DNA of 64,000 bases from Pseudomaricurvus alkylphenolicus (GTDB taxonomy: Bacteria > Pseudomonadota > Gammaproteobacteria > Pseudomonadales > Cellvibrionaceae), in the NCBI RefSeq assembly GCF_011683955.1, contig NZ_JAAQPI010000012.1, forward strand, positions 124,001 to 188,000. The letters are read 5' to 3'. Both the position numbers and the translations under genes were made by a program. The notes under the pieces were generated by a model. The model had not been told where the DNA came from and did no database searches. It was given only the letters and a program-made list of their open reading frames with translations. Of the stretch, positions 19,117-61,333 are shown piece by piece (positions within the stretch are counted from its first letter, which is position 1; each line of letters begins with the position of its first letter).

Positions 19117-19146
19117 TGAGTGACCTGTGCAGATGGCACGCAATGC

Positions 19147-19175
19147 TGCACAAAGTGGATATTCACCGTTATACT
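19147..19175 (+). promoter_or_regulatory. Putative sigma-70 promoter of sat-cysC
   Basis: TGCACA (4 of 6 matches to the -35 consensus) and TATACT (5 of 6 to -10) are separated by exactly 17 bases and end 46 bases before the sat-cysC start. Confidence 0.45.
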
Positions 19176-19221
19176 GCGGGCTGGGAATAACAATCACGAC
19201 ACCTTTTGGGATCTCTGAAGT

Positions 19222-20928
19222 ATGGATACAAGCTCGGCCCACGGCGGCTCTCTGATCGACCTGTATGTTACCGGCGATGCACTTCAGGAGGCGAAAAAGC
19301 GGGCGGAACACAATCGCTCCTGGGACCTCAATGACAAGCAGCTGCTGGACTTGGAGTTGCTGCTCAATGGGGCATTCTCTCCCCTGACCGGCTTTCTCAA
19401 CCAGGAAAACTACCAATCCGTACTGCAAACCATGCGCCTGCAGGACGGTACCCTCTGGCCCATGCCCATCACCCTGGATGTGTCCCGGGAATTTGCCGAC
19501 GCCACCAGCATCGGAGAAGAAATCACCCTGCGCGACGCCGAGGGCGTGGTCATTGCCAACCTGCGAGTCAATGACAAGTGGGAGCCAGATCGCCAGAAGG
19601 AAGCCCAACAACTGTTTGCCACCCTCGACGAAAGTCACCCGGGCGTCAACAGAGTCCTCAATATCAACCACCCGGTGTGCCTGGGCGGCACCCTGGAAGG
19701 CGTCACTCCCCCGCTTCACTACGACTTCAGTCAATACCGCAAGAGCCCAAAGCAACTGCGCCAGCACTTCGCGGAAAGAAACTGGGAGCGGGTCATCGCC
19801 TTCCAGACCCGCAATCCGATTCACAAAGCCCACGTCATCATGATGAAACGCCTGATGGCCCGCAACCAGGCAAACCTGGTCATACACACCGCGGTCGGCA
19901 AAACCAAACCGGGCGATATCGACCACTTCTGCCGGGTGCGCTGCTACGAAAAAGTGCTGTCACATTTCCCGGCCGACAGTGCCGAAATCGAAATCCTGCC
20001 ACTGGCCATGCGCATGGCCGGCCCCAGAGAGGCGCTGTGGCAAGCCATCATTCGTCAAAACTACGGATTCAGCCACTTTATTGTCGGCCGCGACCACGCC
20101 GGCCCCGGCCGCAACAATAGGGGCGGCCTTTTCTATGGCGCTGTCGACGCCCAGGAACTGGTGTCATCATTTCAAAACGAACTCAATATTAAAATTCTCA
20201 AGGCACCCTTTCTGCGCTACGTGGAAAGTCGCGGCGAGTTTGTGGAAGAACACGAACTGCTGTCTGGCGAAGCCGGGCTCTATATCTCCGGCGCGGAGCT
20301 GAAACAGCTGCTGCTGAAGGGAGAGGAAGTTCCATCCTGGTTTGCCTTTCCGGAAGTGGTGGAAGAACTCAATCGCACGCTGCCCCCTCGCCACAAACAG
20401 GGCTTTACGGTATTTTTTACCGGCCTCTCCGGTTCGGGCAAATCCACCCTGGCCAACGGTGTGCGAGTCAAGCTGGAAGAACTGGGTGGCCGGCATGTTT
20501 CGCTGCTGGACGGCGACGTGGTGCGCAAGAACCTGAGCAGCGAGCTGGGGTTCTCAAAAGAACACCGCGACCTGAACATTCAGCGCATTGGCTATGTGGC
20601 CAGTGAGATTGCCAAGAACGGTGGTATTGCCATCTGCGCGCCGATTGCCCCCTACGCCCAGACCCGGCGTAAAGTGCGGGACCTGATTGAGGAAGTGGGG
20701 GCGTTTGTGGAGATTCATGTGGCTACCCCCATTGAGGTGTGTGAGGCGCGGGATCGTAAGGGGTTGTATGCTATGGCGCGAGCCGGGAAGATTAAGGGCT
20801 TTACCGGGATTGATGATCCTTATGAAACGCCGGAGACGCCGGAGATGCGGATTGATACTTCGGAGCTGTCGATGACGGAGGCGGTGGAGGCTGTGGTTGA
20901 GCGGTTGGGGGAGATGGGGTTGATATAG
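19222..20928 (+). CDS. sat-cysC: Fused ATP sulfurylase / APS kinase (PAPS synthase)
   Basis: A 568-residue bifunctional enzyme making 3'-phosphoadenylyl sulfate from sulfate and ATP. The N-terminal ATP sulfurylase domain (about 1-385) has the QTRNPIHKAH motif with the HxxH pair H201/H204 and the GRDHAGPG motif. The C-terminal APS kinase (about 390-568) has a Walker A GLSGSGKST (401-409), the DGDVVRKNLS motif and FSKEHRDLNIQRIGYVA. Such sulfurylase-kinase fusions provide PAPS for sulfate transfer as well as assimilation. Four sulfotransferases lie at 55-64 kb. Codon use in the last ~230 bases shifts from C-ending to G/T-ending codons. Confidence 0.93.
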   Translation: MDTSSAHGGSLIDLYVTGDALQEAKKRAEHNRSWDLNDKQLLDLELLLNGAFSPLTGFLNQENYQSVLQTMRLQDGTLWPMPITLDVSREFADATSIGEEITLRDAEGVVIANLRVNDKWEPDRQKEAQQLFATLDESHPGVNRVLNINHPVCLGGTLEGVTPPLHYDFSQYRKSPKQLRQHFAERNWERVIAFQTRNPIHKAHVIMMKRLMARNQANLVIHTAVGKTKPGDIDHFCRVRCYEKVLSHFPADSAEIEILPLAMRMAGPREALWQAIIRQNYGFSHFIVGRDHAGPGRNNRGGLFYGAVDAQELVSSFQNELNIKILKAPFLRYVESRGEFVEEHELLSGEAGLYISGAELKQLLLKGEEVPSWFAFPEVVEELNRTLPPRHKQGFTVFFTGLSGSGKSTLANGVRVKLEELGGRHVSLLDGDVVRKNLSSELGFSKEHRDLNIQRIGYVASEIAKNGGIAICAPIAPYAQTRRKVRDLIEEVGAFVEIHVATPIEVCEARDRKGLYAMARAGKIKGFTGIDDPYETPETPEMRIDTSELSMTEAVEAVVERLGEMGLI

Positions 20929-21038
20929 CCAATTCCAACCATCTAAAATGCCGCGCACCGATGCTGAATTGAGCACAACAGGGTCATCCCTATTTGCGAA
21001 GTTAAATGGAATAACAGTAGATTCCTGAGAGAAAAAAA

Positions 21039-22616
21039 ATGAAAAATATTGCTGAAATGTTACGCTGGCGTGCCCTGCAGACACCGGACAAAGCAGCTGT
21101 AAAGTTTTTGCAAACTGAACTTACCTGGAAAGAGGTTTACCAGCAGGCTTTCGAGCTGAGCCAACGCCTTGGCGATGCAGGTGTAAGACGAGGTGACGTT
21201 GTCGGTATCTATCTAGATCACAGCCTGGGGCAAGTGATTTCTATTTTTGCCATTGCGCTGCGTGATGCGGTTTTTACAATCGTCAACCCTCAGTTGGTAC
21301 ACGACCAGGTCAAGCACCAGGTTCAGGACGCCTCTATGACGGCGATCCTAGGCTCCGATGAGATGCTGCGTCCTCTGCAGGACTTCTTTGCAAACCGAAT
21401 GATGCACGTGGAATACATTTCCTCAGCTGGACTTGAAGTACGGGATGGGGAAAACCCTGTCGACCTGACAGTCGACACCACCGGCAACATTCCCGCCGAT
21501 GTGTCTAATTACATCTATACGTCGGGCTCGACAGGCCTGGCTAAAGGCGTGGTAGTGCCCCACCGCACACTGCTGGACGGTGCCCGCATCGTTAGCCAGT
21601 ATCTGAAAATAAACGCCGAAGACAATATTCTCAGCATTCTTCCATTCAGCTTCGACTACGGCTTAAACCAGCTGATGAGTGCGGTCCACGCCGGTGCAAA
21701 GATCACACTGCATCATTTTATTTTCCCCAAAGAGCTGGTGGAGATTCTGCAGTCCGAGGAAATAACCGCGCTTGCCGTGGTCCCTTCCGTATGGCCAAAA
21801 ATTCTCAAACCCAAACTGCTGGGCAATGTAACGTTTCCTCGGTTACGCTACATCACCACCGCGGGCGGCTTTCATTCCCCGGAATTATTGCACGACGCCT
21901 CCAGCTATTTTCCGAACACCGAGATCATCGTGATGTACGGATTAACCGAATCTTTCCGTTCCACTTACCTGCCATTTTCAGAAATATTCAACCGCCCCGG
22001 TTCAATAGGTCGGGCGGTGCCAGAGGTGGAGATTCTAGTGCTGAATGAGCAGGGTCAACCCTGTGCACCCGGCGAGAAAGGGGAACTGGTTCACCGCGGC
22101 GCCTTTGTGACCTATGGCTATCTCAATAATGCAGAGCTGAATGAAAAGAAGTTTATCCGGCTCAATCACAGTAACGAGTCACGCCTGCCTGAGTTGGCGG
22201 TACGGTCTGGCGACCAGGTATCGCTGGACAAAGACGGCTTTATATATTTTCACGGCCGTATGGACCAACAGATCAAGAGCAGTGGCTTTCGCATCAGCCC
22301 CGACGAAGTGGCGCAGGCTGTGCTGACTACGCCCGGCATCGGCCAGGCAGTGGTGTTCGGCATGCCAGACAAAGCCCTGGGTGAAGCTATCCACGTGGCT
22401 TACGAGAGCTTTAACAACGAACCGGTCGACATTCTTGAAATCAAGCGGCATGCTAAAAATTCGCTGGCGACTTACGCCATCCCGCACCACTACCATTATT
22501 ACCCTCAAATCCCACTAAATCACAATGGTAAGACGGACTTTACCCGCTTGAAAAACAATGTAATTGCGCAGGCTGCATCTCGCGAAGGACAGGATAAACG
22601 CAGCCATGGCCGATAA
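21039..22616 (+). CDS. AMP-dependent acyl/aminoacyl ligase, exosortase-A-associated type
   Basis: A 525-residue member of the adenylate-forming (ANL) superfamily. It activates a carboxylic acid as acyl-AMP and passes it to CoA or a carrier protein. The P-loop-like motif TSGSTGLAK spans 161-169, MYGLTESFRSTYL is the A5 motif and NHNGKTDF ends with the catalytic lysine K498. It is a clear paralogue of the protein at 48309-49910 (shared FSFDYG, GLTE-FRSTYL, RPGSIG and GELVH segments). First gene of a five-gene operon with a glutamate mutase and an ACP, so its substrate may be an amino-dicarboxylic acid (inference). GAGAGAAA precedes ATG. Confidence 0.87.
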   Translation: MKNIAEMLRWRALQTPDKAAVKFLQTELTWKEVYQQAFELSQRLGDAGVRRGDVVGIYLDHSLGQVISIFAIALRDAVFTIVNPQLVHDQVKHQVQDASMTAILGSDEMLRPLQDFFANRMMHVEYISSAGLEVRDGENPVDLTVDTTGNIPADVSNYIYTSGSTGLAKGVVVPHRTLLDGARIVSQYLKINAEDNILSILPFSFDYGLNQLMSAVHAGAKITLHHFIFPKELVEILQSEEITALAVVPSVWPKILKPKLLGNVTFPRLRYITTAGGFHSPELLHDASSYFPNTEIIVMYGLTESFRSTYLPFSEIFNRPGSIGRAVPEVEILVLNEQGQPCAPGEKGELVHRGAFVTYGYLNNAELNEKKFIRLNHSNESRLPELAVRSGDQVSLDKDGFIYFHGRMDQQIKSSGFRISPDEVAQAVLTTPGIGQAVVFGMPDKALGEAIHVAYESFNNEPVDILEIKRHAKNSLATYAIPHHYHYYPQIPLNHNGKTDFTRLKNNVIAQAASREGQDKRSHGR

Positions 22617-24534
22617 TCCAAAGCAGACTATTCTGCTGGGAGGCATCGGCGGAGACTCCCACTCGGTCGGCCTGAGCATTCTCCGACAGGCACTGGCCGA
22701 GCGCTATCAGGTCTTTTATCTTGGCACCCAGAATGCATTGGAGACATTTTTTGAGCACGCGCCACTCTGCAACGCAGTGATGATCTCCTGCATGGACGGG
22801 CATGCAAAACGTTACCTGACAAAGTTTCCTGAAATGCTGCTGGCAAATCAGACGCTGGAATGCCGCTGGTATCTTGGTGGCAACCTTACCATTGATGAGG
22901 GTATCGGCTATGAAGAACAGTTTCTGCAAATGGGATTTAGCGGAGCCTTCCCAAAGTATGTGGACCTGCAGATCGTAATTGAGCTGCTGGAGCGTGATCT
23001 CTTCGGCCTCGATCCAATCCGAAACAACACCAAGATATGGGAACGCGCTCGCGCGATCAATATCAGCGCCTTCAAAGAACAATCTGAGGAGCCTATTCGG
23101 CGGGAAGACTTCGACCACATGCGCAAGAGCGTGTTGACCAGCTGGAAAACTGGCCACGCCGCCTCACAAATGCAGGCCAACGCCGATTTCCTTCGAGAGC
23201 AGCCTTCGTTCCCTGCGCTGCAACGTGAGGTCCTTGAGGGTGAACGGAAAATGCTGTTGCAGCCACGCTGTGGTGTTGCGTTGGTCGACCAACAAATCGA
23301 GTACTTTAAAGCCTTTAATGCTCTAGGGGCACCAGTATTGTCCTATCAGGTGGACTCCTACACCCGCAACAATAATTATGTGGCAGCGGAAGAAGAAATC
23401 CGCCACAGTAGCCTGTTTGAGTGCACAATCAACGGTTTCCCCGTAATTAATCACGGTGTAGAGGCTCTTCGAAGAACAATCAGTGAGAGCAAGGTACCTC
23501 TTCAGACCCGTCACAGCACGCGCGAGCCCAGACTGCTTGCAGAGGTATCTTACGCCGGCGGTGTCACCAGCTTCGAAGGCGGAGCGATCTGCTATAACAT
23601 CCCCTACTACAACGACTACCAATTGACCGAATCGATACCCGTGTGGCAGTACGTCGATCGCCTGACAGGACTGTACTATGAGGAGTTCGGAATCGTGCTT
23701 GATCGGGAGTTTTTCGGAACCCTGACAGCTACGCTGATACCACCCTGCCTCGCTATCGCTACGGGCATTCTCGAGGCCTTGCTGGCAGTGCAGCAGGGCG
23801 TTCGCTGCGTCAGTATCGGCTATGCGGAACAAGGCCACCGATCCCAAGATATCGCAGCAATACGCACCATCCACAAAATAGCTAAGATTGTGCTTGAGAA
23901 CGCGGGATTTAGCGGCATCCAGGTTAACTCCATTTTTCATCAATACATGGCTGCGTTCCCACCAACGCCGCATATGGCAGAGCAATTGATTCGCGAATCC
24001 GCAGTTACCGCTGCCCTCTCGGGAGCGACACGCATGCTCACTAAGACCCCCGTGGAAGCCTATAAGATTCCCACTATGCGAGACAATATCGAGGGACTGC
24101 AGCTCAATTTTATCGGCATTCGCGAGGCGCAAAATCATTTGGTCGACGAAAAAGCAGTAGCCATGGAGTGCGAGCAGATAGAACGGGAAGTGTGGTCGAT
24201 TATTGAGGGCGTCATTCAAGCAGGCCATGGCAACATCGCATCGGGCATAGTAAAGGCGTTTCTCAATGGGACACTGGATATCCCCTTCGCCCCCAGCATT
24301 CATAACAGAGGGGAAGTGATGACTGCCCGAGACTGCGACGGAGCGGTTCGCTTTCTCCGCACCGGCAATTTGCCATTCGACAACCTGTCGCGCGAGTTTC
24401 ATCGCGACAAGATGAACGATCGCAGACGGCAGGAAGGGTTCATGACCGAGGGTAAAAATGATAACGCCCTGGTGGAGCGAGATGTGTTACGCATTGCGCG
24501 CGGACAATACGAACAGTGGCCGCTATTTAAATAG
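22606..24534 (+). CDS. B12-dependent glutamate mutase, S and E subunits fused
   Basis: A 642-residue chain. Residues ~7-140 match the small cobalamin-binding subunit: ILLGGIGGDSHSVG holds the DxHxxG motif (D17, H19, G22), with GG at 91-92. Residues ~165-642 match the large catalytic subunit. The three arginines that hold glutamate's carboxylates are conserved (R221 in QPRCGV, R254 in YTRNNNY, R302 in QTRHST), as are E324, Y330 and Y334 in FEGGAICYNIPYY. Predicted reaction: L-glutamate to (2S,3S)-3-methylaspartate with adenosylcobalamin. ATG 22606 overlaps the ligase stop by 11 bases; an upstream in-frame TTG (22564) is less likely. Known enzymes are mostly two separate subunits; here they are one, in an operon with a ligase and ACP rather than fermentation genes. 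The residue correspondence relies on recalled family sequences. Confidence 0.88.
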   Translation: MADNPKQTILLGGIGGDSHSVGLSILRQALAERYQVFYLGTQNALETFFEHAPLCNAVMISCMDGHAKRYLTKFPEMLLANQTLECRWYLGGNLTIDEGIGYEEQFLQMGFSGAFPKYVDLQIVIELLERDLFGLDPIRNNTKIWERARAINISAFKEQSEEPIRREDFDHMRKSVLTSWKTGHAASQMQANADFLREQPSFPALQREVLEGERKMLLQPRCGVALVDQQIEYFKAFNALGAPVLSYQVDSYTRNNNYVAAEEEIRHSSLFECTINGFPVINHGVEALRRTISESKVPLQTRHSTREPRLLAEVSYAGGVTSFEGGAICYNIPYYNDYQLTESIPVWQYVDRLTGLYYEEFGIVLDREFFGTLTATLIPPCLAIATGILEALLAVQQGVRCVSIGYAEQGHRSQDIAAIRTIHKIAKIVLENAGFSGIQVNSIFHQYMAAFPPTPHMAEQLIRESAVTAALSGATRMLTKTPVEAYKIPTMRDNIEGLQLNFIGIREAQNHLVDEKAVAMECEQIEREVWSIIEGVIQAGHGNIASGIVKAFLNGTLDIPFAPSIHNRGEVMTARDCDGAVRFLRTGNLPFDNLSREFHRDKMNDRRRQEGFMTEGKNDNALVERDVLRIARGQYEQWPLFK

Positions 24535-24558
24535 CAATCGAGATAAGGGGAAAATACT

Positions 24559-24807
24559 ATGGCCTTGGTTGACGACATTAGAGACCTTCTTTGCAACACT
24601 TTGGTGTTAGAGGCAGAAACAGCAACCATGGGTTCGGACTCACCGCTTTTAGGGGCGGTTCGGGAACTCGACTCTGTTGGTGTAATGGCCGTTGTGACAG
24701 CACTGGAAGATCAGTTCGACATTGAAATTGATGACGATGAAATCTCCACCGAGGTATTCAAGACCTTGGGCAGCCTGACCTCATTCGTCGCGGAAAAAGT
24801 GGGATGA
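24559..24807 (+). CDS. Acyl carrier protein (operon copy)
   Basis: An 82-residue acidic helical protein. The phosphopantetheine attachment serine is S39 in ELDSVGVMAVV. It is similar throughout to the ACP at 55947-56192 (PLxGA, xLE, DxExxxExFxTxGSL). AAGGGG precedes ATG. It lies between the mutase and a hydrolase gene, overlapping the latter by 4 bases (ATGA), so the ligase, mutase and ACP are probably made together and the ACP may carry the ligase product. Confidence 0.88.
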   Translation: MALVDDIRDLLCNTLVLEAETATMGSDSPLLGAVRELDSVGVMAVVTALEDQFDIEIDDDEISTEVFKTLGSLTSFVAEKVG

Positions 24808-25676
24808 ATACAGACGGCTTAAGCCCGATACAGGAATCCATTCACGAGACTACCGCGTCAGCTTCCGACACTCTAATGGAACCCGGCTTTATTGGTCCGC
24901 CTGGACAGCAACTGTTCACGCTGGATTTTAAACCAGCCGGCGTGGTGCGCGGCCACATTATCTATATTCCACCATTTGGCGAGGAGATGAACCGCAGCCG
25001 TACACTGGCAGCGGAACAGGCTCGCAGATTTGCCCGGAATGGTTACCACTGCACGGTGCTGGATCTCTTCGGCACAGGTGACAGCGATGGAGAGCTGGTT
25101 GATGCGACCATTTCCACGTGGCTGGAGAATATCGAAGGGGCGGCTGCAAATTCGGAAACAGAAGGGCTGCCGAAAATTTTATGGGGTTTGCGGCTGGGGG
25201 CCCTGCTGGCAATGCACGCGGCTGCCGCAAACCCGGGGCGTTTTCAGCGTTTGGTTCTGTGGCAGCCTGTAACCTCAGGAAAGCGTTTTATGACACAATT
25301 GCTGCGCTTGCGAGTGGCGTCCCTGGCGAGTCGTGGTCTTCCTGCGGAATCAACACAGGACATTCGACGTAATTTGGATAACGGCGAAACCGTTGACGTC
25401 GCGGGGTACCCACTTGTCGATGCGCTGGTCAGTGATATAGAAAAAATGGATGCAGGGAGTGTACAAGGTTTGGATTCCATAAAGCTGGATTGGTTTGAAT
25501 ATCTGCCTGAGGAAGGGGCGAAACCAGCAATCGGCGTGCAGAAGGCACTGGACGCACTGCGTGAACAGTGCGAGACCGTGCGACTTCACAGTTTCTCTTC
25601 ACCACCTGTCTGGCAACTTCAGAAACGCTATTTTTCTCATGAGCTGGTCGCTAAGACCACGGGACTGCTGCAATGA
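24804..25676 (+). CDS. Alpha/beta hydrolase-fold protein, exosortase-A-associated hydrolase 2 type
   Basis: A 290-residue alpha/beta-hydrolase-fold protein of the hydrolase 2 kind found in exosortase-A polysaccharide loci. It has IIYIPPFGEEMNRSR at the oxyanion-hole position and VLDLFGTGDSDG after strand 4. The nucleophile elbow reads GLRLG (128-132), with arginine R130 where a serine is expected, so normal serine-hydrolase chemistry is not possible at that position. It overlaps the ACP stop and the next gene's start by 4 bases each (ATGA twice), which indicates translational coupling. It may move or bind an ACP-linked group rather than hydrolyse esters (inference). Confidence 0.83.
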   Translation: MNTDGLSPIQESIHETTASASDTLMEPGFIGPPGQQLFTLDFKPAGVVRGHIIYIPPFGEEMNRSRTLAAEQARRFARNGYHCTVLDLFGTGDSDGELVDATISTWLENIEGAAANSETEGLPKILWGLRLGALLAMHAAAANPGRFQRLVLWQPVTSGKRFMTQLLRLRVASLASRGLPAESTQDIRRNLDNGETVDVAGYPLVDALVSDIEKMDAGSVQGLDSIKLDWFEYLPEEGAKPAIGVQKALDALREQCETVRLHSFSSPPVWQLQKRYFSHELVAKTTGLLQ

Positions 25677-26557
25677 ATTCTGCGTGCCTACAGAAAGCAG
25701 TGACCTTCGACTGCGAAGGTGATCGACTGGTTGGCGTGCTCCATTTGCCTCAAGAGGCCAAAGATTGGGGTGTTATTACTGTGGTCGCGGGAGGACCTCA
25801 GTATCGGGCCGGTTGCGGACGACAGCTGTTGCTGATGGGACGAGAACTGGCGGCTCAAGGAATCCCGGTCATGCGCTTCGACCAGCGCGGCGTGGGCGAT
25901 AGCGAGGGAGACTTCCTTGGATTTCACCGCATGACAGAAGAGTATCGCGCGGCGGTGAAGGCCTTCAAGGAACACGCCCCATCAGTGCGCCATATCGCGT
26001 TATGGGGAGGCTGTGACGCAGCGGCGAGCGCCCTGATCCACGGTTGGAAAATCGATGGAATAGACGGCTTAATGCTGGCAAACCCCTTTCTCACCTATCC
26101 CTCCAGCAGGGCTAACCTCCAAAGAAAACACTACCTGAAACGACTGGGAGAGCGTTCATTTTGGAAAAAAGTGCTGACCCTACAATACAACCCACTCGAA
26201 TATGCGGGTGCTCTGCTTGGCCGCCCTACCGCAAAGCCTAAATCCGTAACATCACCCGCCGGCGATGGCGACCAGCAGCTTGTTCATGTTCCGGAGGACT
26301 TTGGGGATCACATGTTGAAGGGCTTGAACCAATTTCAAGGTCAAGTGCTGTTTGTGATGAGTGAACACAGCCCCACTCGCCGAGAATTCGACGAGATTAT
26401 TGCGGATCATCCCGGCTGGGGCAAAGCTTACCGGGATTGCAATGCCAAACGGGTAGACCTACCAGAAGCCGATCAGACTTTTTCCACAGAGGGCTCTCGT
26501 GCAGCGGCGAGCGAGGCGGCACTGGAGTGGTTAAATCTGCTTTGTGCGAAGCAGTAA
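25673..26557 (+). CDS. Alpha/beta hydrolase, exosortase-A-associated hydrolase 1 type
   Basis: A 294-residue alpha/beta hydrolase. VVAGGPQYRAG gives the oxyanion-hole loop, MRFDQRGVGDSEGD the strand-4 loop, and the nucleophile elbow reads GGCDAA with C114 in place of serine. A cysteine nucleophile would suit thioester or acyl transfer from the operon's ACP (inference). Last gene of the coupled operon; its start overlaps the preceding stop by 4 bases. No terminator is evident in the 183 bases that follow. Confidence 0.83.
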   Translation: MNSACLQKAVTFDCEGDRLVGVLHLPQEAKDWGVITVVAGGPQYRAGCGRQLLLMGRELAAQGIPVMRFDQRGVGDSEGDFLGFHRMTEEYRAAVKAFKEHAPSVRHIALWGGCDAAASALIHGWKIDGIDGLMLANPFLTYPSSRANLQRKHYLKRLGERSFWKKVLTLQYNPLEYAGALLGRPTAKPKSVTSPAGDGDQQLVHVPEDFGDHMLKGLNQFQGQVLFVMSEHSPTRREFDEIIADHPGWGKAYRDCNAKRVDLPEADQTFSTEGSRAAASEAALEWLNLLCAKQ

Positions 26558-28272: not shown

Positions 28273-28310
28273 CGAAACCCCCGCAGCATGTGGCTTGCGA
28301 GGGTTTCATA
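28273..28310 (-). terminator. Rho-independent terminator beside the left tRNA fragment
   Basis: Read on the minus strand, AAACCCTCGCA and TGCGGGGGTTT form an 11-bp stem with one G:T pair around a 10-base loop, followed by TTTCGTCGTTTT partly overlapping the stem. It sits just 3' of the tRNA-Ala-like fragment at 28319-28358, where a tRNA gene's own terminator would be. Confidence 0.6.
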
Positions 28311-28318
28311 TTTGGTGG

Positions 28319-28358
28319 GCCTAGCGGGATCGAACCGCTGACCTCAACACTGCCAGTG
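28319..28358. repeat. Left attachment-site copy (tRNA-Ala 3' fragment)
   Basis: Identical over 40 bases to 38271-38310 and covers the T arm, variable loop and part of the anticodon arm of tRNA-Ala. Beyond the repeat the tRNA 5' half is missing. On the acceptor side the match continues with a one-base deletion (TGGTGG-GCC here, TGGTGGAGCC in the intact gene). Confidence 0.88.
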
Positions 28359-28377
28359 CGCTTCCGGCTCAAGCACC

Positions 28378-28490
28378 ATACACCTGAATACCCGCTAATA
28401 CACCAAAATAGGCCTTTAAAATCAATGAGTTGTGATGAGCTGCAATTCACTTTGAGTTAAAGAGGTGTATTGAAGTGTATCTCAGTGTAT
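28378..28490. promoter_or_regulatory. Inverted arrays of 10-bp-phased hexamers between att and integrase
   Basis: ATACAC, ATACCC and ATACAC occur at 28378, 28388 and 28398. Their reverse complement GTGTAT occurs at 28465, 28475 and 28485. Both triplets have an exact 10-bp period, and the two arrays face each other across ~60 bases. Helical phasing between an attachment core and an integrase gene suggests cooperative binding of a recombination-directionality factor or the integrase itself. Confidence 0.6.
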
Positions 28491-28497
28491 GAATTTG

Positions 28498-28517
28498 GGA
28501 CTTAATAGGGACTTAAG
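28498..28517. repeat. 20-bp repeat, left copy (probable integrase arm sites)
   Basis: GGACTTAATAGGGACTTAAG, built from two tandem GGACTTAA units 11 bases apart. The identical 20-mer recurs at 38180-38199 in the same orientation, inside the right end of the element. Tandem short repeats inside each end are typical of arm-type integrase binding sites. Confidence 0.7.
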
Positions 28518-28657
28518 CTGAAATTGCCCGGGAGCCCCTATTAGCACCATCCCCTATGGTTCAGTTAATCCTGAATACCAGGAATTAACCGTACCGCATA
28601 TTCCCCTTCTGCTCTTTAGCCTCTCTTCCCATTATCCACAACGAAGAGATGCTCATC

Positions 28658-29899: not shown

Positions 29900-30008
29900 C
29901 CTTCAGGAGGGGTAGACCAGTTAATTCTTCCAGCGGGAATTTAACTGGCCCTACCTCCTGCTTGCACATCCCTACCATGGCCACTCAATTCATTAATTGG
30001 AAACAACC

Positions 30009-30239
30009 ATGGAACAGTTCAATACCCCCCTATTTAGCACATCAGTAGCCGCTCTATATCTAGATGTGAGCACTGAATGGTTAAAACGTAAACGAATAAC
30101 CGGAAACGTCGGTGGGAATACAGCAGGCCCCAAATACATTAAGATCGGCAGACTAGTGAAGTACCGAAAGGTCGATCTAGATCAATATATCGCCGACATG
30201 CCTAGTTACTGTCATGTCGCCGAGGAAACAATGATGTAA
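30009..30239 (+). CDS. AlpA/MerR-like small DNA-binding protein
   Basis: A 76-residue protein with an N-terminal helix-turn-helix region (FSTSVAALYLDVSTEWLKRKR) and a following beta-wing-like YIKIGRLVKYRKVDLDQYI, the pattern of AlpA/excisionase-type helix-turn-helix proteins. Such proteins beside integrases often activate excision or repress early genes, so it is a candidate ligand for the phased hexamer array at 28378-28490. ATG 30009 is used; the TTG 12 bases upstream is less likely. Confidence 0.75.
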   Translation: MEQFNTPLFSTSVAALYLDVSTEWLKRKRITGNVGGNTAGPKYIKIGRLVKYRKVDLDQYIADMPSYCHVAEETMM

Positions 30240-30251
30240 TGGAGTCCAACC

Positions 30252-31103: not shown

Positions 31104-31207
31104 TCTCGTCATTTAGATTTTAACTGAACCTGGAAAAACCTCCTCCTCCCATATTCTCCTTTCTAGCGGCAATGGTGCCGTGAATTTAAAATTTTTTAGG
31201 AGAATAG

Positions 31208-33049: not shown

Positions 33050-33077
33050 CTTAACTTTCACTCCCACATAACAAGAA

Positions 33078-33135
33078 CGGGAATAGCGGGAATAGCGGGA
33101 ATTCGTCCCGCCCTTCCCGTAGATCCCGCTTTTTT
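33078..33135 (+). terminator. Triple-nested hairpin terminator after the DUF927 gene
   Basis: Three copies of CGGGAA/GCGGGA on the 5' side (33078, 33087 and 33095) pair in order with TCCCG (33124-33128), TTCCCG (33114-33119) and TCCCGC (33106-33111), followed by a TTTTTT run. A strong rho-independent terminator 28 bases after the stop. Confidence 0.85.
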
Positions 33136-33264
33136 GAAACCACCCTCGCTACACAGGTCAGTGTGTGCTAATGGCACGTAGGGATATACGAGAATATTCC
33201 AACGCTCTCCTTCAGGAGGGCTATGCTTGCTCACATAGCTTGCCCCCCCTATTAGGAGACTATA

Positions 33265-36509: not shown

Positions 36510-36513
36510 ACTC

Positions 36514-37665: not shown

Positions 37666-37781
37666 TCCAAGGGGCCTTATCCAGTAAGATCACAAAAATC
37701 AACAAATAGAAGCTTACATAGATTAATAGCCAAAAGCCACGCGACACCGTGCATTGATATACAAAGTCATACTAGAGACTC

Positions 37782-48220: not shown

Positions 48221-48308
48221 AAATGAATCACTCGTTATAAGTTATCATGGTTTGCCGTTCATATGTCGCGGAAAGACCTGATCGAATCTGCAAACACAGG
48301 ATGTGGGG

Positions 48309-49910
48309 ATGCCGGAACAGCTCCATCAGCTCATAGAAAACAGTGCAGCACGATACCCAGATTCTACCGCACTGGTTTCTAAAGCGACTCAGTTGAATTA
48401 CCGTGAGCTTTGGCAAGCTGTCCAGGCAGCGGCTTTTGGTCTAGCGAACAGTGGACTGCAGGAAAACCAGCGCGTCGCACTTTACCTTCCCAAAGTTTCT
48501 GAGGCCGTTGTTGGCTGCTTCGGAACAAGCCTTGCCGGTGGTGTTTTCGTACCAATCAATCCATTACTAAAACCGGCACAGGTCAAACACATACTTCTCG
48601 ACTGTAACGTCCATACGTTCATAACCTCTACTGATCGCCTGGTCAACTTACAAGATACGCTCTCGGGCTGTCCGGCTCTCAAAAACATCGTCTATATCGG
48701 CAGAAACCCAACTGATGAGAAAATCGAGCAACCGCATAGCTCAAAGTTCATTCCATGGGAAGAAATCGCAGGAACACAGCCTGACTCCTACCACAGCTCA
48801 GCCAGAATTGATACTGATATGGCGGCCATACTCTACACCTCTGGTAGCACAGGAAAACCAAAAGGCGTGGTCCTGAGTCATCGCAATATGCTATGTGGCG
48901 CTGACAGCGTGGTGCAATTTTTACAAAATACACGAGATGATCGTCTGCTAGCAGTAATGCCGTTCAGTTTTGACTATGGTTTTAGCCAGCTCACCACCGC
49001 GTTTCTGGTCGGCGCCCAAGTGATCATGTTGGACTACCTGTTCCCAAGAGACTTGATAAAAGCTGTGACGAAACACCGTATCACCGGATTGGCTGCGGTG
49101 CCCCCCCTATGGAACCAATTGGTAAAGTTAGACTGGCCGGAGGAAGCGCAGTCCAGCCTTCGATACCTGACCAATACCGGCGGAGCAATGCCTAAAGCGA
49201 CTACGTCCAAACTGATACAGGCCTTGCCCAACACCTCAATTTACCTGATGTATGGTCTCACGGAGGCGTTCCGCTCGACCTATCTATCACCAGAAGAGAT
49301 ACACCACCGACCTGGCTCCATTGGAAAAGCGATCCCCAATGCGAAGGTCATGGTGGTGCGAAAAGATGGCAGTCCCTGCCTCCCCAATGAGCCTGGCGAA
49401 CTTGTACACATGGGGTCTCTGGTGACTCTTGGGTACTGGAATGACCCGGCAAAGACGGCAGAACGATTCAAACCGGCTCCTTCTCAACCGGGTGAACTGC
49501 CTTTGGCAGAGACCGCAGTCTGGTCTGGAGACCGTGTCTACAAAGACGAAGACGGGTTTTTTTACTTTGTCAGCCGCAACGATGAGATGATCAAAACCTC
49601 GGGCTACAGGGTAAGCCCCTCAGAGCTTGAAGACGTATTACACCAATCCGGATTGGTTGAGGATGTTGCCGCACTGGGGATACCCCACCCGGAATTGGGA
49701 CAGGCTATTGTTGTGGTCGCCTCCTCAACTTCCGCCACAGCAGATGATATCAAACAGGCCTGCTTGAGAGAGCTACCCAGTTACATGCAACCACATATCA
49801 TTGAGTTGATGAGGCAGCTGCCGAAGAACACGAACGGCAAATTGGATCGCAGTGCACTGAAAAAGCAGTATTCCAAGCGCTCACGGGAAGAAAATCCGGA
49901 GACCAAATGA
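48309..49910 (+). CDS. AMP-dependent acyl-CoA ligase, exosortase-A-associated
   Basis: A 533-residue adenylate-forming enzyme. The AMP motif TSGSTGKPK spans 177-185, A5 reads MYGLTEAFRSTYL, and the terminal lysine motif is NTNGKLDRSAL. It is a paralogue of the ligase at 21039-22616. The ATG at 48309 has AGGA 8 bases upstream; a GTG at 48303 is an alternative. It overlaps the PLP decarboxylase by 4 bases (ATGA). This ligase-decarboxylase order is the one seen in exosortase-A polysaccharide loci. Confidence 0.87.
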   Translation: MPEQLHQLIENSAARYPDSTALVSKATQLNYRELWQAVQAAAFGLANSGLQENQRVALYLPKVSEAVVGCFGTSLAGGVFVPINPLLKPAQVKHILLDCNVHTFITSTDRLVNLQDTLSGCPALKNIVYIGRNPTDEKIEQPHSSKFIPWEEIAGTQPDSYHSSARIDTDMAAILYTSGSTGKPKGVVLSHRNMLCGADSVVQFLQNTRDDRLLAVMPFSFDYGFSQLTTAFLVGAQVIMLDYLFPRDLIKAVTKHRITGLAAVPPLWNQLVKLDWPEEAQSSLRYLTNTGGAMPKATTSKLIQALPNTSIYLMYGLTEAFRSTYLSPEEIHHRPGSIGKAIPNAKVMVVRKDGSPCLPNEPGELVHMGSLVTLGYWNDPAKTAERFKPAPSQPGELPLAETAVWSGDRVYKDEDGFFYFVSRNDEMIKTSGYRVSPSELEDVLHQSGLVEDVAALGIPHPELGQAIVVVASSTSATADDIKQACLRELPSYMQPHIIELMRQLPKNTNGKLDRSALKKQYSKRSREENPETK

Positions 49911-51139
49911 AGAAGTCACAGCGAACCCACGTCAAGATGCGCCAGTTTCCGGTTAGAAACAATGTTCTCTGTGTCAATGACACACCTATCACTGAGATCG
50001 CACGTCAAATTGGACATACCCCTTTTTATGTTTACGACAAGCGTTTAATAACGAGTAGAATTCAGGAGCTGCGGAAGGCGCTCCCTCCACAGCTGCAGCT
50101 CCACTACGCCATAAAGGCAAATCCCATGGCTGCTCTGGTAAATCACATCAGCACTCTCGTCGATGGACTGGACATTGCTTCTCTAGGGGAAATGCGCATC
50201 GCCGAGGGCGCATCCACGTCAGCAGAAAACGTAAGCTTCTCCGGCCCTGGCAAAAGTAACGAGGAACTTCGGGAGGCGCTAGCCTCCGGAATCACCATAA
50301 ACATAGAATCACAGTGGGAACTGCAGCGTTTGCTTAGAATGAGCCAGGACGCCGGTAAAGTGCCCAGCATAACTATTCGTGTTAATCCTGACTTCGAGGT
50401 TATCGGCTCCGGCATGCGAATGGGAGGTGGCGCACGACCATTTGGTATTGATACTGAAAAAATACCCCAGGTCGTTCAAGAGGTTGAGGCTGCGAACGTC
50501 AACTTCCTCGGCTTTCACATTTACTGGGGATCACAAAACCTCTGTGTTGAGCATATTCTCGCCGCCCAAAAATCTACGCTGGATCTCGCCAGACGTCTTT
50601 CACAATTTTGCTCCAAACCTATCCGGTTGCTCAATATCGGGGGAGGACTCGGCATTCCATACTTCCCTGGAGACCAACACCTGGATCTAGAGAGCATCGG
50701 CAGTGGACTGGGAAAGATTCTGCAGCAATACCCTGAATTCAACGAATGTAATATTATTATTGAATTGGGCCGATATATTGTCGGCGAGGCAGGCTTATAT
50801 GTTTGCGAAATTATTGATCGAAAAGAGTCGCGTGGCGAAACCTTCCTGATTACCAATGGCGGCCTGCACCACCACTTGGCCGCTTCCGGTAATTTCGGGC
50901 AGATAATTCGTAAGGATTATCCCGTATGCATCGGCAACAGAATGCAGGATAGCAACAAAGAAAAGGCCGTTATAGTTGGCCCTTTGTGTACACCTCTAGA
51001 TATATTGGCCAATAAAATCGAGCTGCCAAAAGCAGGGCCTGGGGACTTAGTGGTTGTATACCAATCAGGCGCTTACGGGCTAACTGCTAGCCCACAGGAC
51101 TTTTTAAGCCACCCACGAGCCGGCGAAGTGCTACTGTAG
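49907..51139 (+). CDS. PLP-dependent decarboxylase, exosortase-A-associated (fold-type III)
   Basis: A 410-residue member of the ornithine/diaminopimelate decarboxylase family. The PLP lysine is K70 in YAIKANP; the phosphate loop GGGLGIPY follows near 245, and the C-terminal GPLCTPLDIL gives the partner-subunit cysteine C361 and D365. It probably decarboxylates an amino-acid-like substrate that the neighbouring ligase activates. It overlaps the ligase by 4 bases. Confidence 0.88.
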   Translation: MKKSQRTHVKMRQFPVRNNVLCVNDTPITEIARQIGHTPFYVYDKRLITSRIQELRKALPPQLQLHYAIKANPMAALVNHISTLVDGLDIASLGEMRIAEGASTSAENVSFSGPGKSNEELREALASGITINIESQWELQRLLRMSQDAGKVPSITIRVNPDFEVIGSGMRMGGGARPFGIDTEKIPQVVQEVEAANVNFLGFHIYWGSQNLCVEHILAAQKSTLDLARRLSQFCSKPIRLLNIGGGLGIPYFPGDQHLDLESIGSGLGKILQQYPEFNECNIIIELGRYIVGEAGLYVCEIIDRKESRGETFLITNGGLHHHLAASGNFGQIIRKDYPVCIGNRMQDSNKEKAVIVGPLCTPLDILANKIELPKAGPGDLVVVYQSGAYGLTASPQDFLSHPRAGEVLL

Positions 51140-51170: not shown

Positions 51171-53021
51171 GTGAACGACATCAAGACCCAGGATCTATTT
51201 GGTTGGATTCAATTCGATTCAATGCCCCAAAAAGGAGCCGAAGGCATCACCGCCATGAAGCTGGCAGTTTCGTCTTCCGCTTTGGAAACCAGAATCGATC
51301 CCCAATTTTCACTTGCGACCAACGGCAGCACGCACTCATGCAAGGACACGCTGATTGTGGCTGCTATTGTGGGCTCTCCCTTTTGGAGCGATCCAGCGCT
51401 GCAAGACCTTCACGACCAATATGACGCTGCCCACAGCCTGGTACAAGCCTACCAGGCTTATGGTGACGAATGCCTCTGCAAACTACGAGGGAGTTATGCT
51501 CTGGCGCTTGTCGATCCCGTTAATAAACGAGCGCTGGTTGCCACTGATCGTTTCTGCCAGCACAGCCTATATTATCAAGTTATCGATCGGCAATTAATCT
51601 TTGGGACTTCAGCCAGGGTTGTAGTTGCACACCCTGACGTCAATGTGGCTCTCAATGCCCAAAGCATCTACGACTACATCTTCTTTCATATGATTCCCAG
51701 TCCTGTCAGTATTTATAAAGGGCTACATAAACTGCAGGCCGCCTCCGTGCTGACGCTGGAACAGGATTCTGTCTCTAGCCGCAGCCACTGGTCCCCGACA
51801 TTCACTGAAACCAATAACCAACCCTTTGAGTCCAAGCAAGACTCCCTTCAGTCCGCCCTCAGACAATCCGTTAAACGCCAACTGCAACAGTACGAAGGCA
51901 AAAAGATAGGTTCCTTTTTGAGTGGGGGGCTGGACAGCTCCACAGTTACCGGACACTTGGCCGAACTCACCGAGAGAAGCGCTCCAGCTTTTTCCATCGG
52001 TTTTTCGGCCGAGGGCTACGATGAGATGGCCTATGCCAGAACAGTTTCCCGCCACTTCGGCGTTGAACTCCACGAGTATTACGTGACACCACAAGATGTC
52101 ACCGACGCTCTACCGAGCATTGCCACCAGCTATGATGAACCTTTTGGGAATTCATCCGCGCTACCCGCGTGGTTTTGCGCTCAAATGGCCTCCAGGGAAG
52201 GCATGGATCTGCTGCTGGCCGGCGATGGCGGTGATGAGTTGTTCGGCGGAAACGAACGTTACGCAAAGCAGCTGGTATTTGAACGTTTTTATCATTTACC
52301 ACCTATTGGAAGAAGTGCACTGGAATGGACTATTAATCGTCTCCCTACGTCGCCCAAATTGCTGCAGAAAGCGAAAAGCTATATTCAACAGGCGAAGATT
52401 CCGCTTCCAGACCGTTTGCAAACCTACAACTATCTTCAAAGGCATAACCCATCTGAGGTCTTCACTTCAGACTTTTTGGCAAATATCGAGACTGAGCATC
52501 CTTTTGCATTATTGCGGGACAATTATTTTCAACTTACTGACATTCATCAGCTTAATGCCATGATGCGCCTTGATTGGCAATTTACTTTGGCTGACAATGA
52601 CATCCGCAAAGTAAGCCATATGTGTTCTCAATCAGGTATAGAAGTAGCTTACCCTATGCTTGACGATGACCTTGTAGACTTTTCATGCAAAATACCGAGC
52701 AGGGAAAAGCTGCTCAAAGGTAACTTAAGAGACTTCTATAAGCGGTCTCTACGGGGCTGGTTGCCTGACGCAACTATCGACAAGACAAAACAGGGCTTTG
52801 GTCTTCCCTTTGGGGTATGGCTCAAAGAACACACGACCCTGCGCAATCTGTCAGACGACTTACTTGAGTCGCTCAAGACGCGAGGCATCATCAGAATCAA
52901 ATTTATTGATGAAATCAAACGACTACACCGATCGACCCACGCTCATTATTACGGTGAGCTTATTTGGGTCTTGATTATTCTTGAAGCATGGCTTAACTCT
53001 CAAGAGAACCTCAAAACCTAA
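51171..53021 (+). CDS. Asparagine-synthase-like amidotransferase lacking the catalytic N-terminal Cys
   Basis: A 616-residue AsnB-type protein. The N-terminal glutaminase-like domain (about 1-210) begins MNDIKTQDLFGWI rather than MCGI, so the nucleophilic Cys2 is missing. The synthetase domain has an intact PP-loop SGGLDSS (251-257) and the GDGGDELFGG motif near 350. It should adenylate a carboxylate and use ammonia, or an amine as in beta-lactam synthetases, rather than glutamine. The GTG start 51171 is used. It follows the decarboxylase by 31 bases, and might join the decarboxylated amine to a uronic acid (inference). Confidence 0.85.
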   Translation: MNDIKTQDLFGWIQFDSMPQKGAEGITAMKLAVSSSALETRIDPQFSLATNGSTHSCKDTLIVAAIVGSPFWSDPALQDLHDQYDAAHSLVQAYQAYGDECLCKLRGSYALALVDPVNKRALVATDRFCQHSLYYQVIDRQLIFGTSARVVVAHPDVNVALNAQSIYDYIFFHMIPSPVSIYKGLHKLQAASVLTLEQDSVSSRSHWSPTFTETNNQPFESKQDSLQSALRQSVKRQLQQYEGKKIGSFLSGGLDSSTVTGHLAELTERSAPAFSIGFSAEGYDEMAYARTVSRHFGVELHEYYVTPQDVTDALPSIATSYDEPFGNSSALPAWFCAQMASREGMDLLLAGDGGDELFGGNERYAKQLVFERFYHLPPIGRSALEWTINRLPTSPKLLQKAKSYIQQAKIPLPDRLQTYNYLQRHNPSEVFTSDFLANIETEHPFALLRDNYFQLTDIHQLNAMMRLDWQFTLADNDIRKVSHMCSQSGIEVAYPMLDDDLVDFSCKIPSREKLLKGNLRDFYKRSLRGWLPDATIDKTKQGFGLPFGVWLKEHTTLRNLSDDLLESLKTRGIIRIKFIDEIKRLHRSTHAHYYGELIWVLIILEAWLNSQENLKT

Positions 53022-55946: not shown

Positions 55947-56192
55947 TCACATTTTGGATTCTATAAATTTAGCCAAGCTACCCACCGTTTCGAATATCTC
56001 AGCTTCGAGTTCCTCATCAAATATTTCGCAATCAAGCCGCTCTTCAAGAGTAGTGACTATGGCAACAATCGTCAGGGAATTAAACTCCGGCATCGCTCCC
56101 ATCAAAGGAGTCTCGGGTACGAAACTGTCTGCCCTGTCTCCCTGTTCGAGACAGACTTTCACTACGTCTTTTGCTATTGCTAAGGCGTTCAT
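55947..56192 (-). CDS. Acyl carrier protein (exopolysaccharide locus copy)
   Basis: An 81-residue ACP with S39 in FNSLTIVAIV. The usual DSL is NSL here, which phosphopantetheinyl transferases may still accept. Colinear with the ACP at 24559-24807. It begins 8 bases after the neighbouring sulfotransferase gene on the same strand; 173 AT-rich bases without a gene separate it from the next gene. Confidence 0.8.
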   Translation of the reverse strand: MNALAIAKDVVKVCLEQGDRADSFVPETPLMGAMPEFNSLTIVAIVTTLEERLDCEIFDEELEAEIFETVGSLAKFIESKM

Positions 56193-59798: not shown

Positions 59799-61301
59799 CT
59801 AACTCCGAGCTCGAAATCGTGCACGTAGCTTCTCGAATCTTTCCTGGACCACTTCCAGACAGAAGAACTCTATTGATTTTGGTCTGCCTACCAGTATCCA
59901 AAGTATCAATAGCAACCCAACATATACTGTTCCACCGACCATCACTGCGCCCGCCAGCATCAGAATTAAATTGAGCTCCGGCAATAGATTTTGCGCCAAA
60001 TCTATATAGTATCGCACGGTTACCGCCATAATCAGCGATGCAAGTAGTGGCCTGGATACTACCTGAAAAAAATCATATACCGATAGAGATAGTCGCTTTG
60101 AGACCGGAAAAAACACAAGAGGTAAAACCACGAATGAGGTAATCGCGTAAGCCCAAACCACACCCTCAATGCCATTTAAAGGTAAAAGATACAGGCTCAA
60201 AGGCACAAATATCAAAAGCTTGATTGCCGTCAGGCGAGCCAACTTTGATATCGCACCTATGGCTACGTAGATGCCATATACCTCAGATAATGCAGTTAAT
60301 CCTGCGGCAAAAGCTAGAACTTCCATTAACGGAATAGTCTCACTCCAAGCATCTCCTAGAGCTAGCGGAACAAGTAAATGAGTTATTGAATATAGTCCAA
60401 ATGAAGCTGGAAGAACGATGGCCACAATGCCGGAAAATGTGCCAAGAAAGCTCTGTTTTAACTTCATGAGGTTGTTGCTCAACTTCGCGTAGCCAGGAAA
60501 AGCTGCCCTATTAATCGGCACAACAATGGCGGTGGTGGCGGCAGAACAGATATCTTTTGTAACAGTAAGGTGCCCCAGGGCAGCGGTCGGCAGAAATCTC
60601 CCAACGATAAATTGAGGTGCACTATTGTAAGCGAAGTTCAATAAATTATTTGCGAACATCCATAATGAAAAAGAGGTCAACTCACGATAACTCGCAAGGC
60701 TTAGTCTTGGCCGATAGTGATGCATATAATAGCTTAATGCGACAGTGTAAAAATTAGTCAATACAGAGCCAATGACCAGGGCCCAATAGCTCCTGAGGAT
60801 TACTGCAGATAATACCGTCACCGTAAAGCTGACTAATTTACGACTGACCATGAAGGTGAAGTCCTTATTGAACCTCATCTCCTTTCTAAACGCTATAATT
60901 CCTATATTTTCAAAACCCGTAACTGCCATGCCAATGGCTAAGAATCTGAGAACCTCTGCCAGACGGGGTTCATTAAAAAATGATGCCGCTGAATCGGCAA
61001 CAAGAGCCAACATGCTCGCGGCGAGCAATGCCATGATGATCTTGAATGTCCATGCTGTATCGTATAAGTTTCTGCCTGCATTTTGATTCTGGATTAATGC
61101 AGCGTCCACTCCAATGGCTCGAAACACATCAATAAAGCCTACGACCACCATGCCAATCGCGATAATCCCAAAGTCAGCGGGGATCAGCAGCCTGGCTAGT
61201 ATTATGGTGGAAAATACACTGATAAATTTTTCAACAAAACGAAAGAGTACAGTCCAATAGGATCCCTTAGCTATTTGCTGATTAACGCTAACATCGGTCA
61301 T
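59799..61301 (-). CDS. Polysaccharide flippase (Wzx-like, MOP superfamily)
   Basis: A 500-residue integral membrane protein with 12-14 hydrophobic segments. The amphipathic N-terminus (GSYWTVLFRFVEKFISVFSTIILARLLIPADFG) is typical of the lipopolysaccharide-flippase branch. It would move lipid-linked repeat units to the periplasm. The ATG 61301 start is used; an in-frame TTG (61325) lies upstream. AT-rich like the rest of the operon. Confidence 0.88.
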   Translation of the reverse strand: MTDVSVNQQIAKGSYWTVLFRFVEKFISVFSTIILARLLIPADFGIIAIGMVVVGFIDVFRAIGVDAALIQNQNAGRNLYDTAWTFKIIMALLAASMLALVADSAASFFNEPRLAEVLRFLAIGMAVTGFENIGIIAFRKEMRFNKDFTFMVSRKLVSFTVTVLSAVILRSYWALVIGSVLTNFYTVALSYYMHHYRPRLSLASYRELTSFSLWMFANNLLNFAYNSAPQFIVGRFLPTAALGHLTVTKDICSAATTAIVVPINRAAFPGYAKLSNNLMKLKQSFLGTFSGIVAIVLPASFGLYSITHLLVPLALGDAWSETIPLMEVLAFAAGLTALSEVYGIYVAIGAISKLARLTAIKLLIFVPLSLYLLPLNGIEGVVWAYAITSFVVLPLVFFPVSKRLSLSVYDFFQVVSRPLLASLIMAVTVRYYIDLAQNLLPELNLILMLAGAVMVGGTVYVGLLLILWILVGRPKSIEFFCLEVVQERFEKLRARFRARS

Positions 61302-61333
61302 TCCGCTTTTTCTTTGCCTCAGCAACTTTAGAT

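What the first reader, a model, noticed from the sequence alone, without database searches (positions are those of the whole stretch)
21039..26557. Glutamate mutase in a ligase-ACP-hydrolase operon: possible 3-methylaspartate polysaccharide or lipid modification
Ligase, single-chain glutamate mutase, ACP and two alpha/beta hydrolases overlap or nearly touch (11-base overlap, 24-base gap, then two ATGA overlaps). The mutase keeps the DxHxxG cobalamin motif and all three glutamate-binding arginines plus the catalytic E/Y residues, so it looks active. Glutamate mutase is known from fermentation and antibiotic pathways. Here the partners are of exosortase-A-associated type, suggesting that 3-methylaspartate (or its product) is activated, loaded on the ACP and attached to a surface molecule. 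A fused S-E chain is also uncommon.
Basis: partly seen in the sequence, partly recalled or inferred. Interest (0 to 1): 0.88.

Follow-up and report, generated by a model that had tools for sequence, protein, structure and literature searches.

The report
B12 mutase feeding surface-sugar decoration
A bacterial gene cluster appears to use a vitamin-B12 enzyme to turn glutamate into an unusual amino acid that is loaded on a carrier protein, probably to decorate surface sugars, a kind of route so far known mainly from antibiotic making.

Summary
The operon is real and exactly where stated: AMP-ligase, fused S-E glutamate mutase, ACP and two exosortase-A-type hydrolases, spaced -11, 24, -4 and -4 bases. 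The mutase keeps 13 of 16 checked MutE positions, including all three arginines. Five relatives (53-76% identical) all lie beside an ACP and a ligase, and the six ligases form one clade (100/100). They share the Asp230 and Arg331 positions of VinN, which activates 3-methylaspartate as a beta-amino acid. Two of five relatives have a TIGR03099-type decarboxylase next to the mutase; the window has one 25 kb away, closest in the PDB to BtrK, an aminoacyl-ACP decarboxylase. The contig carries an XrtA polysaccharide locus, and a separate catabolic mutase sits beside methylaspartase. Best reading: glutamate -> 3-methylaspartate -> 3-methylaspartyl-ACP -> (probably) 3-aminoisobutyryl-ACP -> surface glycan: vicenistatin-like starter chemistry in a polysaccharide setting, a new variant of a known kind. 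Product and attachment are inferred; nothing was assayed.

The parts
21039..22616 (+). AMP-forming ligase, probably aminoacyl-ACP ligase (TIGR03098-like; VinN-like positions D206, Y207, R307)
22606..24534 (+). single-chain glutamate mutase: S (B12) domain about residues 6-132, linker, E barrel about 166-612
24559..24807 (+). acyl carrier protein, LDS motif (Ser39 by count)
24804..25676 (+). exosortase-A-associated hydrolase 2 (TIGR03101); elbow G-L-R-L-G without Ser
25673..26557 (+). exosortase-A-associated hydrolase 1 (TIGR03100); Cys at the elbow (G-G-C-D-A)
48303..49910 (+). second ligase, TIGR03098 over cut-off (747.5 bits)
49907..51139 (+). PLP decarboxylase, TIGR03099 over cut-off (579.6 bits); closest PDB chains are BtrK aminoacyl-ACP decarboxylases; overlaps the second ligase by 4 bases
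55947..56192 (-). second acyl carrier protein
51171..53021 (+). asparagine-synthase-like amidotransferase (TIGR03108 283.9 bits, below cut-off)
59799..61325 (-). MOP/Wzx-type flippase (best NCBIfam match 167.4 bits, below its cut-off)
19222..20928 (+). bifunctional sulfate adenylyltransferase/APS kinase just upstream (sulfate activation)

Best explanation
The operon is the supply module of a surface-polysaccharide locus. Step 1 (strongly inferred): the fused adenosylcobalamin-dependent mutase turns free L-glutamate into 3-methylaspartate. Step 2 (inferred): the ligase adenylates 3-methylaspartate at its side-chain (beta) carboxylate, as VinN does, and loads it on the operon's ACP. Step 3 (inferred; direct gene neighbour only in relatives): a BtrK/VinO-like PLP decarboxylase (window 49907-51139) removes the alpha-carboxylate, giving 3-amino-2-methylpropionyl (3-aminoisobutyryl)-ACP. 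Step 4 (guess): the acyl group is moved onto an amino or hydroxyl group of an XrtA-type polysaccharide or glycan, perhaps with help from hydrolase 1, which has a Cys in its nucleophile elbow.
For: Mutase family and residues; predicted fold matches MutE 6h9e_B (TM by target 0.89) and MutS 1i9c_A (0.80) (mean pLDDT 74.3). Ligase and ACP in the cluster in 6 of 6 fused-mutase loci; ligase near 0 of 5 ordinary E-chain loci, three of which have only about 1.5 kb of flank. The six ligases are one clade, 100/100, in a 38-row tree. VinN (3wvn_A, 156.5 bits) is the first PDB match below multi-domain synthetases; the printed alignment pairs D206-Y207 with VinN D230-F231 and R307 with R331, without a gap in the loop; VinN's use of these residues is described in PMC11253843 (passages read). 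A TIGR03099 decarboxylase (583.9 bits) is convergent with the Nitrosomonas mutase, 32 bases apart; one of 442.6 bits, below the 478.45 cut-off, follows the mutase on the same strand in G071, 45-base gap. The window decarboxylase matches BtrK at 271 bits against 182 for the next family. XrtA locus on the same contig: exosortase A, O-ligase, stp1, stp2, amidotransferase, chain-length protein. The catabolic mutase sits elsewhere beside methylaspartase.
Against: No biochemistry. In the window the decarboxylase is 25 kb from the mutase and coupled to its own second ligase. Three of six fused-mutase genomes (G452, G453, G073) have no TIGR03099-type enzyme: their best scores, 207-234 bits, are at diaminopimelate-decarboxylase level. 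The window ligase is below the TIGR03098 cut-off. VinN S299 aligns with Ala275 and K330 with Phe306. VinN is not a unique best match: with a profile of eight ligases an excised NRPS domain (4d4g, 273.9 bits) scores above it (265.7), and with the pocket fragment alone 4-coumarate ligase (30.9), HitB (30.9) and VinN (29.8) score alike. The mutase has T94Q and K322R in all six fused chains, and L007 has Tyr at H291. No GlmL-type reactivase was matched among the operon genes. By eye, L005 is flanked by ectoine-type genes and L006 shows no glycan genes in its 12 kb; L007 has a second, NRPS-like adenylation protein 7 kb downstream.
Confidence: 0.55

Rival explanations
1. 3-Methylaspartyl-ACP itself, not decarboxylated, is the donor; the window's decarboxylase serves only the second ligase (for instance aspartate to beta-alanyl-ACP).
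For: The decarboxylase overlaps the second ligase by 4 bases and is 25 kb from the mutase; three of six fused-mutase genomes lack a TIGR03099-type enzyme; L006 and L007 instead share a weakly GNAT-like gene and a PALP-fold enzyme.
Against: In L005 and L032 the decarboxylase is the mutase's direct neighbour.
Confidence: 0.27
2. The mutase belongs to glutamate catabolism and the ligase is an unrelated fatty-acid ligase; the operon is accidental.
For: NCBI names the ligase family acyl-CoA ligase; glutamate mutase is classically catabolic (recalled).
Against: A ligase of one clade lies near all six fused mutases across three named phyla; no methylaspartase was matched among the seven proteins scanned from 17377 to 26554; the genome has a separate mutase with methylaspartase (TIGR01502, 529.8 bits), a CoA-transferase-family and a CitE/RipC-like gene; 38 of 38 ligases keep Asp206 and Arg307.
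Confidence: 0.06
3. The module makes a beta-amino-acid unit for a small secreted natural product or lipid rather than for a polysaccharide.
For: The same enzyme set makes macrolactam starters (PMC5785472, passages read); L007 has a second adenylation protein 7 kb downstream; L005 and L006 show no obvious glycan genes by eye.
Against: No polyketide synthase or modular NRPS among the window proteins scanned; the window locus has glycosyltransferases, a flippase and, past its end, XrtA genes; glycosyltransferases lie in L032 and an O-antigen ligase in L033.
Confidence: 0.12

Closest known systems
Vicenistatin/sceliphrolactam starter module (VinH-VinI mutase, VinN ligase, VinL ACP, VinO decarboxylase)
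   Same: Same four activities: glutamate mutase, 3-methylaspartate ligase, ACP, decarboxylase (PMC5785472 passages)
   Different: Mutase is one chain; no polyketide synthase found among the window proteins scanned; setting is an XrtA polysaccharide locus; decarboxylase adjacent in only 2 of 6 loci; ligase only distantly similar (156.5 bits)
Exosortase A (XrtA/PEP-CTERM) ligase-decarboxylase-ACP-hydrolase set (TIGR03098/03099/03100/03101)
   Same: Hydrolases over cut-off; ligase and decarboxylase over cut-off elsewhere in the window; XrtA locus on the contig
   Different: A glutamate mutase and a divergent ligase clade are added; a mutase lies beside 1 of 30 TIGR03098-like ligase loci examined (30 of the 46 places found; flanks about 1.5 kb), and that one is G071
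Glutamate mutase of Clostridium cochlearium (MutS + MutE)
   Same: All three arginines and 13 of 16 positions checked; same predicted fold
   Different: Single chain; T94Q and K322R in all six fused proteins; no methylaspartase neighbour matched
BtrK, L-glutamyl-[BtrI ACP] decarboxylase of butirosin
   Same: Best PDB relative of the decarboxylase
   Different: Glycan rather than aminoglycoside setting; substrate untested

Membership tests
Glutamate mutase (EC 5.4.99.1) | E-chain family over curated cut-off | tested here: met
   TIGR01503 441.7 bits, cut-off 390.1
Glutamate mutase (EC 5.4.99.1) | Cobalamin-binding S domain with DxHxxG | tested here: met
   D17xH19xxG22, invariant in all six fused chains; the S models score under their own cut-offs (63.3 of 110 and 47.7 of 135.8)
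Glutamate mutase (EC 5.4.99.1) | Arg66/100/149, Glu171, Tyr177, Tyr181, Lys326, Glu330 | tested here: met
   These eight kept in 6 of 6 fused chains; T94 and K322 changed in 6 of 6; list and roles recalled
Glutamate mutase (EC 5.4.99.1) | Activity on glutamate with adenosylcobalamin | not testable with these tools
   needs assay
TIGR03098 exosortase-A ligase | Score over curated cut-off 592.35 | tested here: not met
   466 bits; a separate clade from the window's canonical second ligase
VinN-type beta-aminoacyl-ACP synthetase | Asp230, bulky residue at 231, shortened beta13-beta14 loop with Lys330/Arg331 | tested here: inconclusive
   Asp, Tyr and Arg present, no gap in the loop alignment, Lys330 is Phe
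VinN-type beta-aminoacyl-ACP synthetase | Ser299 | tested here: not met
   Ala275
XrtA/PEP-CTERM polysaccharide locus | Exosortase A and companion genes on the same contig | tested here: met
   TIGR03109 334.4 bits, and TIGR03097, TIGR03087, TIGR03088, TIGR03108, TIGR03007 over cut-off in the 20 kb past the window
Methylaspartate (catabolic) pathway | Methylaspartase beside the mutase | tested here: not met
   not matched among the seven proteins scanned at 17377-26554; present at the other mutase
Vicenistatin-type starter module | Mutase, ligase, ACP and decarboxylase in one cluster | tested here: inconclusive
   All four in L005 and L032; in the window the decarboxylase is 25 kb away; none in L006, L007, L033

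The most novel reading that the evidence does not exclude
The XrtA-associated ligase, ACP, decarboxylase and hydrolases are in general a beta-aminoacyl-ACP pathway that decorates the XrtA polysaccharide (for example aspartate to beta-alanyl), mislabelled as acyl-CoA ligase; in this lineage a fused B12 mutase switches the decoration to the branched beta-amino acid 3-aminoisobutyrate, a radical-enzyme-derived building block in a surface glycan.
Probability: 0.4. Interest if true: 0.85.

Novelty: new variant of a known kind. Interest (0 to 1): 0.74.

Why it matters
If true it places adenosylcobalamin radical chemistry in surface-polysaccharide biosynthesis, gives the orphan XrtA ligase, decarboxylase and hydrolase families (labelled hypothetical equivalogs in NCBIfam) a testable substrate class, and offers natural single-chain glutamate mutases, which may be easier to study than the two-component enzyme.

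Tried and rejected
Catabolic role: rejected because a separate mutase with methylaspartase exists and the fused form pairs with a ligase in 6 of 6 loci. Ordinary fatty acyl-CoA ligase: disfavoured by Asp206 and Arg307 in 38 of 38 ligases; I did not run the same count on known fatty-acid ligases. A first motif table and tree had 10 truncated ligase rows of 28 and was redone with full rows; L045 (the window's second ligase) and L069 (the same gene as L032) were dropped as duplicates from the 30 loci. The mutase tree carries a long-branch warning, and the non-fused rows lack the S-domain columns; I use it only to say that the fused chains group together (100/99).

Paper searches: searches found none; one search listed six papers, none on polysaccharide decoration by title; one search found 397 papers with two of three terms, and the 15 listed hold no mention of glutamate mutase; one search listed one unrelated paper; one search found 766 with two of three terms, and the 12 listed hold no 3-amino-2-methylpropionate. 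All by listing only, in the held open-access library; (17 listed) gave nothing on these ligases by title. Craig et al. 2011 on XrtA-linked N-acyl amino acid synthases is not held; I saw only its citation.

Full report
Observation. Family scans give an AMP-binding ligase (best NCBIfam match TIGR03098, 466 bits, under its cut-off of 592.35), a methylaspartate mutase E chain (over cut-off) with a MutS-like N-terminal domain (its models under their own cut-offs), an ACP, and the two exosortase-A-type hydrolases TIGR03101 and TIGR03100 over cut-off. Against C. cochlearium MutE the window protein is identical at 13 of 16 positions that I chose from memory, including Arg66, Arg100, Arg149, Glu171, Tyr177, Tyr181, Lys326 and Glu330; A67C, T94Q and K322R differ, the last two in all six fused chains. 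An AlphaFold model made with six fused sequences (mean pLDDT 74.3) matches MutE 6h9e_B (TM by target 0.89) and, for the N-terminal part, MutS 1i9c_A (0.80).

Relatives. A scan of the species collection, limited by its peptide patterns, found three further fused mutases: in a Nitrosomonas MAG (L005, 76% identical), a MAG labelled Deltaproteobacteria and placed in Myxococcota (L006, 59%), and a Magnetobacteriaceae MAG of Nitrospirota (L007, 53%). Whole-genome searches added G071 and G073 (55 and 53%). In samples: 3 of 398 genomes of the window's phylum including its own, 1 of 58 near relatives, its own, 1 of 329 in the phylum of L006, that genome itself, 1 of 345 in the phylum of L007, itself. 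The form is rare and patchy, which suggests transfer of a module; MAG binning errors are possible.

Context. All six fused mutases have a TIGR03098-like ligase upstream on the same strand (in G073 with an AAC(3)-like gene and a further reading frame between them) and an ACP in the cluster; the ACP of L032 is divergent, and that of L033 was seen only with a profile of the other five (30.0 bits, E 2.4e-8). Three split-type loci (L014, L034, L035) have the ligase but no detected ACP; five ordinary E-chain loci (L016 and L036 with wide flanks, L038-L040 with about 1.5 kb) have neither. The six fused-mutase ligases are one clade with 100/100 support in a tree of 38 ligases, 28 of them from a TIGR03098 search of 299 genomes that matched 42 genomes at 46 places, of which 30 came as loci. 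Of those 30 loci, with flanks of about 1.5 kb, 21 show a decarboxylase like the window's (one is the window's own), 7 a hydrolase of this kind, and 1 a mutase, which is G071 itself. The mutase is therefore an addition to the usual XrtA set.

Chemistry of the ligase. In the PDB search the first match below multi-domain synthetases is VinN (156.5 bits), which activates 3-methylaspartate as a beta-amino acid. A review gives Asp230, Phe231, Ser299, Lys330, Arg331 and a shortened loop as the basis (PMC11253843, passages). In the printed alignment the window ligase pairs Asp206, Tyr207 and Arg307 with Asp230, Phe231 and Arg331 without a loop gap, but Ala275 with Ser299 and Phe306 with Lys330 (VinN numbers counted as chain number minus 16). 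Asp206 and Arg307 are present in 38 of 38 ligases, Tyr207 in 35 of 38. HitB, a beta-phenylalanine enzyme, has Ala at the Arg position in the same output. Against a special VinN link: with a profile of eight ligases an excised NRPS domain scores above VinN, and with the pocket fragment alone 4-coumarate ligase, HitB and VinN score alike. The pattern argues for amino acids with a second carboxylate and against the label acyl-CoA ligase; it does not prove 3-methylaspartate.

Decarboxylase. A TIGR03099 enzyme is over cut-off in the window at 49907-51139 and in L005, convergent with the mutase and 32 bases from it; one of 442.6 bits (cut-off 478.45) follows the mutase in G071 after 45 bases. The window enzyme is closest in the PDB to BtrK, an L-glutamyl-ACP decarboxylase (271 bits; next family 182), and is 51.6 and 38.5% identical to those of L005 and L032. 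The genomes of L006, L007 and G073 have only lower-scoring relatives, 207-234 bits. L006 and L007 share a weakly GNAT-like gene, ACP, PALP-type enzyme, ligase and mutase in that order, and G073 has an AAC(3)-like acyltransferase between ligase and mutase. These could be transferases onto amino sugars; that is inference.

Setting. In the window, downstream, lie the second ligase and decarboxylase, an amidotransferase, two glycosyltransferases, sulfotransferase matches, a flippase and a second ACP; past the window end come the XrtA O-ligase, amidotransferase, stp2, exosortase A, stp1, FemAB and the chain-length protein. A roughly 10 kb integrated element (28309-38310) with a direct repeat of about 50 bases at tRNA-Ala(ggc) and an integrase lies between the operon and this locus, so the two were probably closer before its insertion. 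Among relatives, L032 has glycosyltransferases and L033 an O-antigen ligase; L007 looks like a glycan locus by eye, with an NRPS-like adenylation protein 7 kb downstream; L005 is flanked by ectoine-type genes and one protein with a PEP-CTERM-like end, and L006 shows no glycan genes, both by eye only. The glycan link is therefore good in the window and mixed elsewhere. Hydrolase 2 has Arg where the nucleophile would be, in 7 of 7 rows including the window; hydrolase 1 has Cys in 5 of 6 rows, the sixth gapped.

Control against a catabolic role. The same genome carries a separate MutS-MutE pair beside methylaspartate ammonia-lyase (529.8 bits), a CoA-transferase-family gene and a CitE/RipC-like gene, the company expected of glutamate breakdown.

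Judgement. By step: the mutase is a glutamate mutase, about 0.85; the ligase loads its product on the ACP, about 0.7; decarboxylation in this organism, about 0.5; glycan attachment, about 0.55. On checking, I lowered the overall confidence from 0.57 to 0.55 and the novel reading from 0.42 to 0.40, and raised the natural-product rival from 0.10 to 0.12, because L005, L006 and L007 had been told too favourably. I found no report of glutamate mutase in polysaccharide decoration in the held library (listings only). The chemistry is known from macrolactams (PMC5785472, passages); setting, fusion and partners differ, hence a new variant of a known kind.

Noticed in passing
window 28309-38310: About 10 kb integrated element at tRNA-Ala(ggc) 38264-38339 with a direct repeat of about 50 bases (left copy 28309-28358), integrase 28649-29899 and, by eye, a DNA cytosine methyltransferase-like gene 34802-35848.
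   Followed up: partly
L014 11713-16277 (own genome, C45); also L034, L035: A second, split mutase (S, E, GlmL-like) in one operon with a TIGR03098-like ligase, without a detected ACP, conserved in three genomes; its product is unknown.
   Followed up: partly
window 24804-26557: Hydrolase 1 has Cys (5 of 6 rows, one gapped) and hydrolase 2 has Arg (7 of 7 rows) at the nucleophile elbow; hydrolase 1 could be an acyltransferase and hydrolase 2 a non-catalytic partner.
   Followed up: partly
window 17377-20928 and 54997-63862: Sulfate-activation enzyme and a CitMHS/sulfate-symporter-like protein just upstream of the operon, and three sulfotransferase matches in the glycan locus (one over, two just under the Pfam cut-off), hint at a sulfated polysaccharide.
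   Followed up: no
L042-L071: Asp and Arg at the VinN 230/331 positions are invariant in the TIGR03098-like ligases aligned (38 of 38), suggesting that the name acyl-CoA ligase is wrong for the family.
   Followed up: partly
L006 1976-7905, L007 5947-11905: Five-gene order weakly GNAT-like gene, ACP, PALP enzyme, ligase, fused mutase shared between a Myxococcota and a Nitrospirota MAG.
   Followed up: partly
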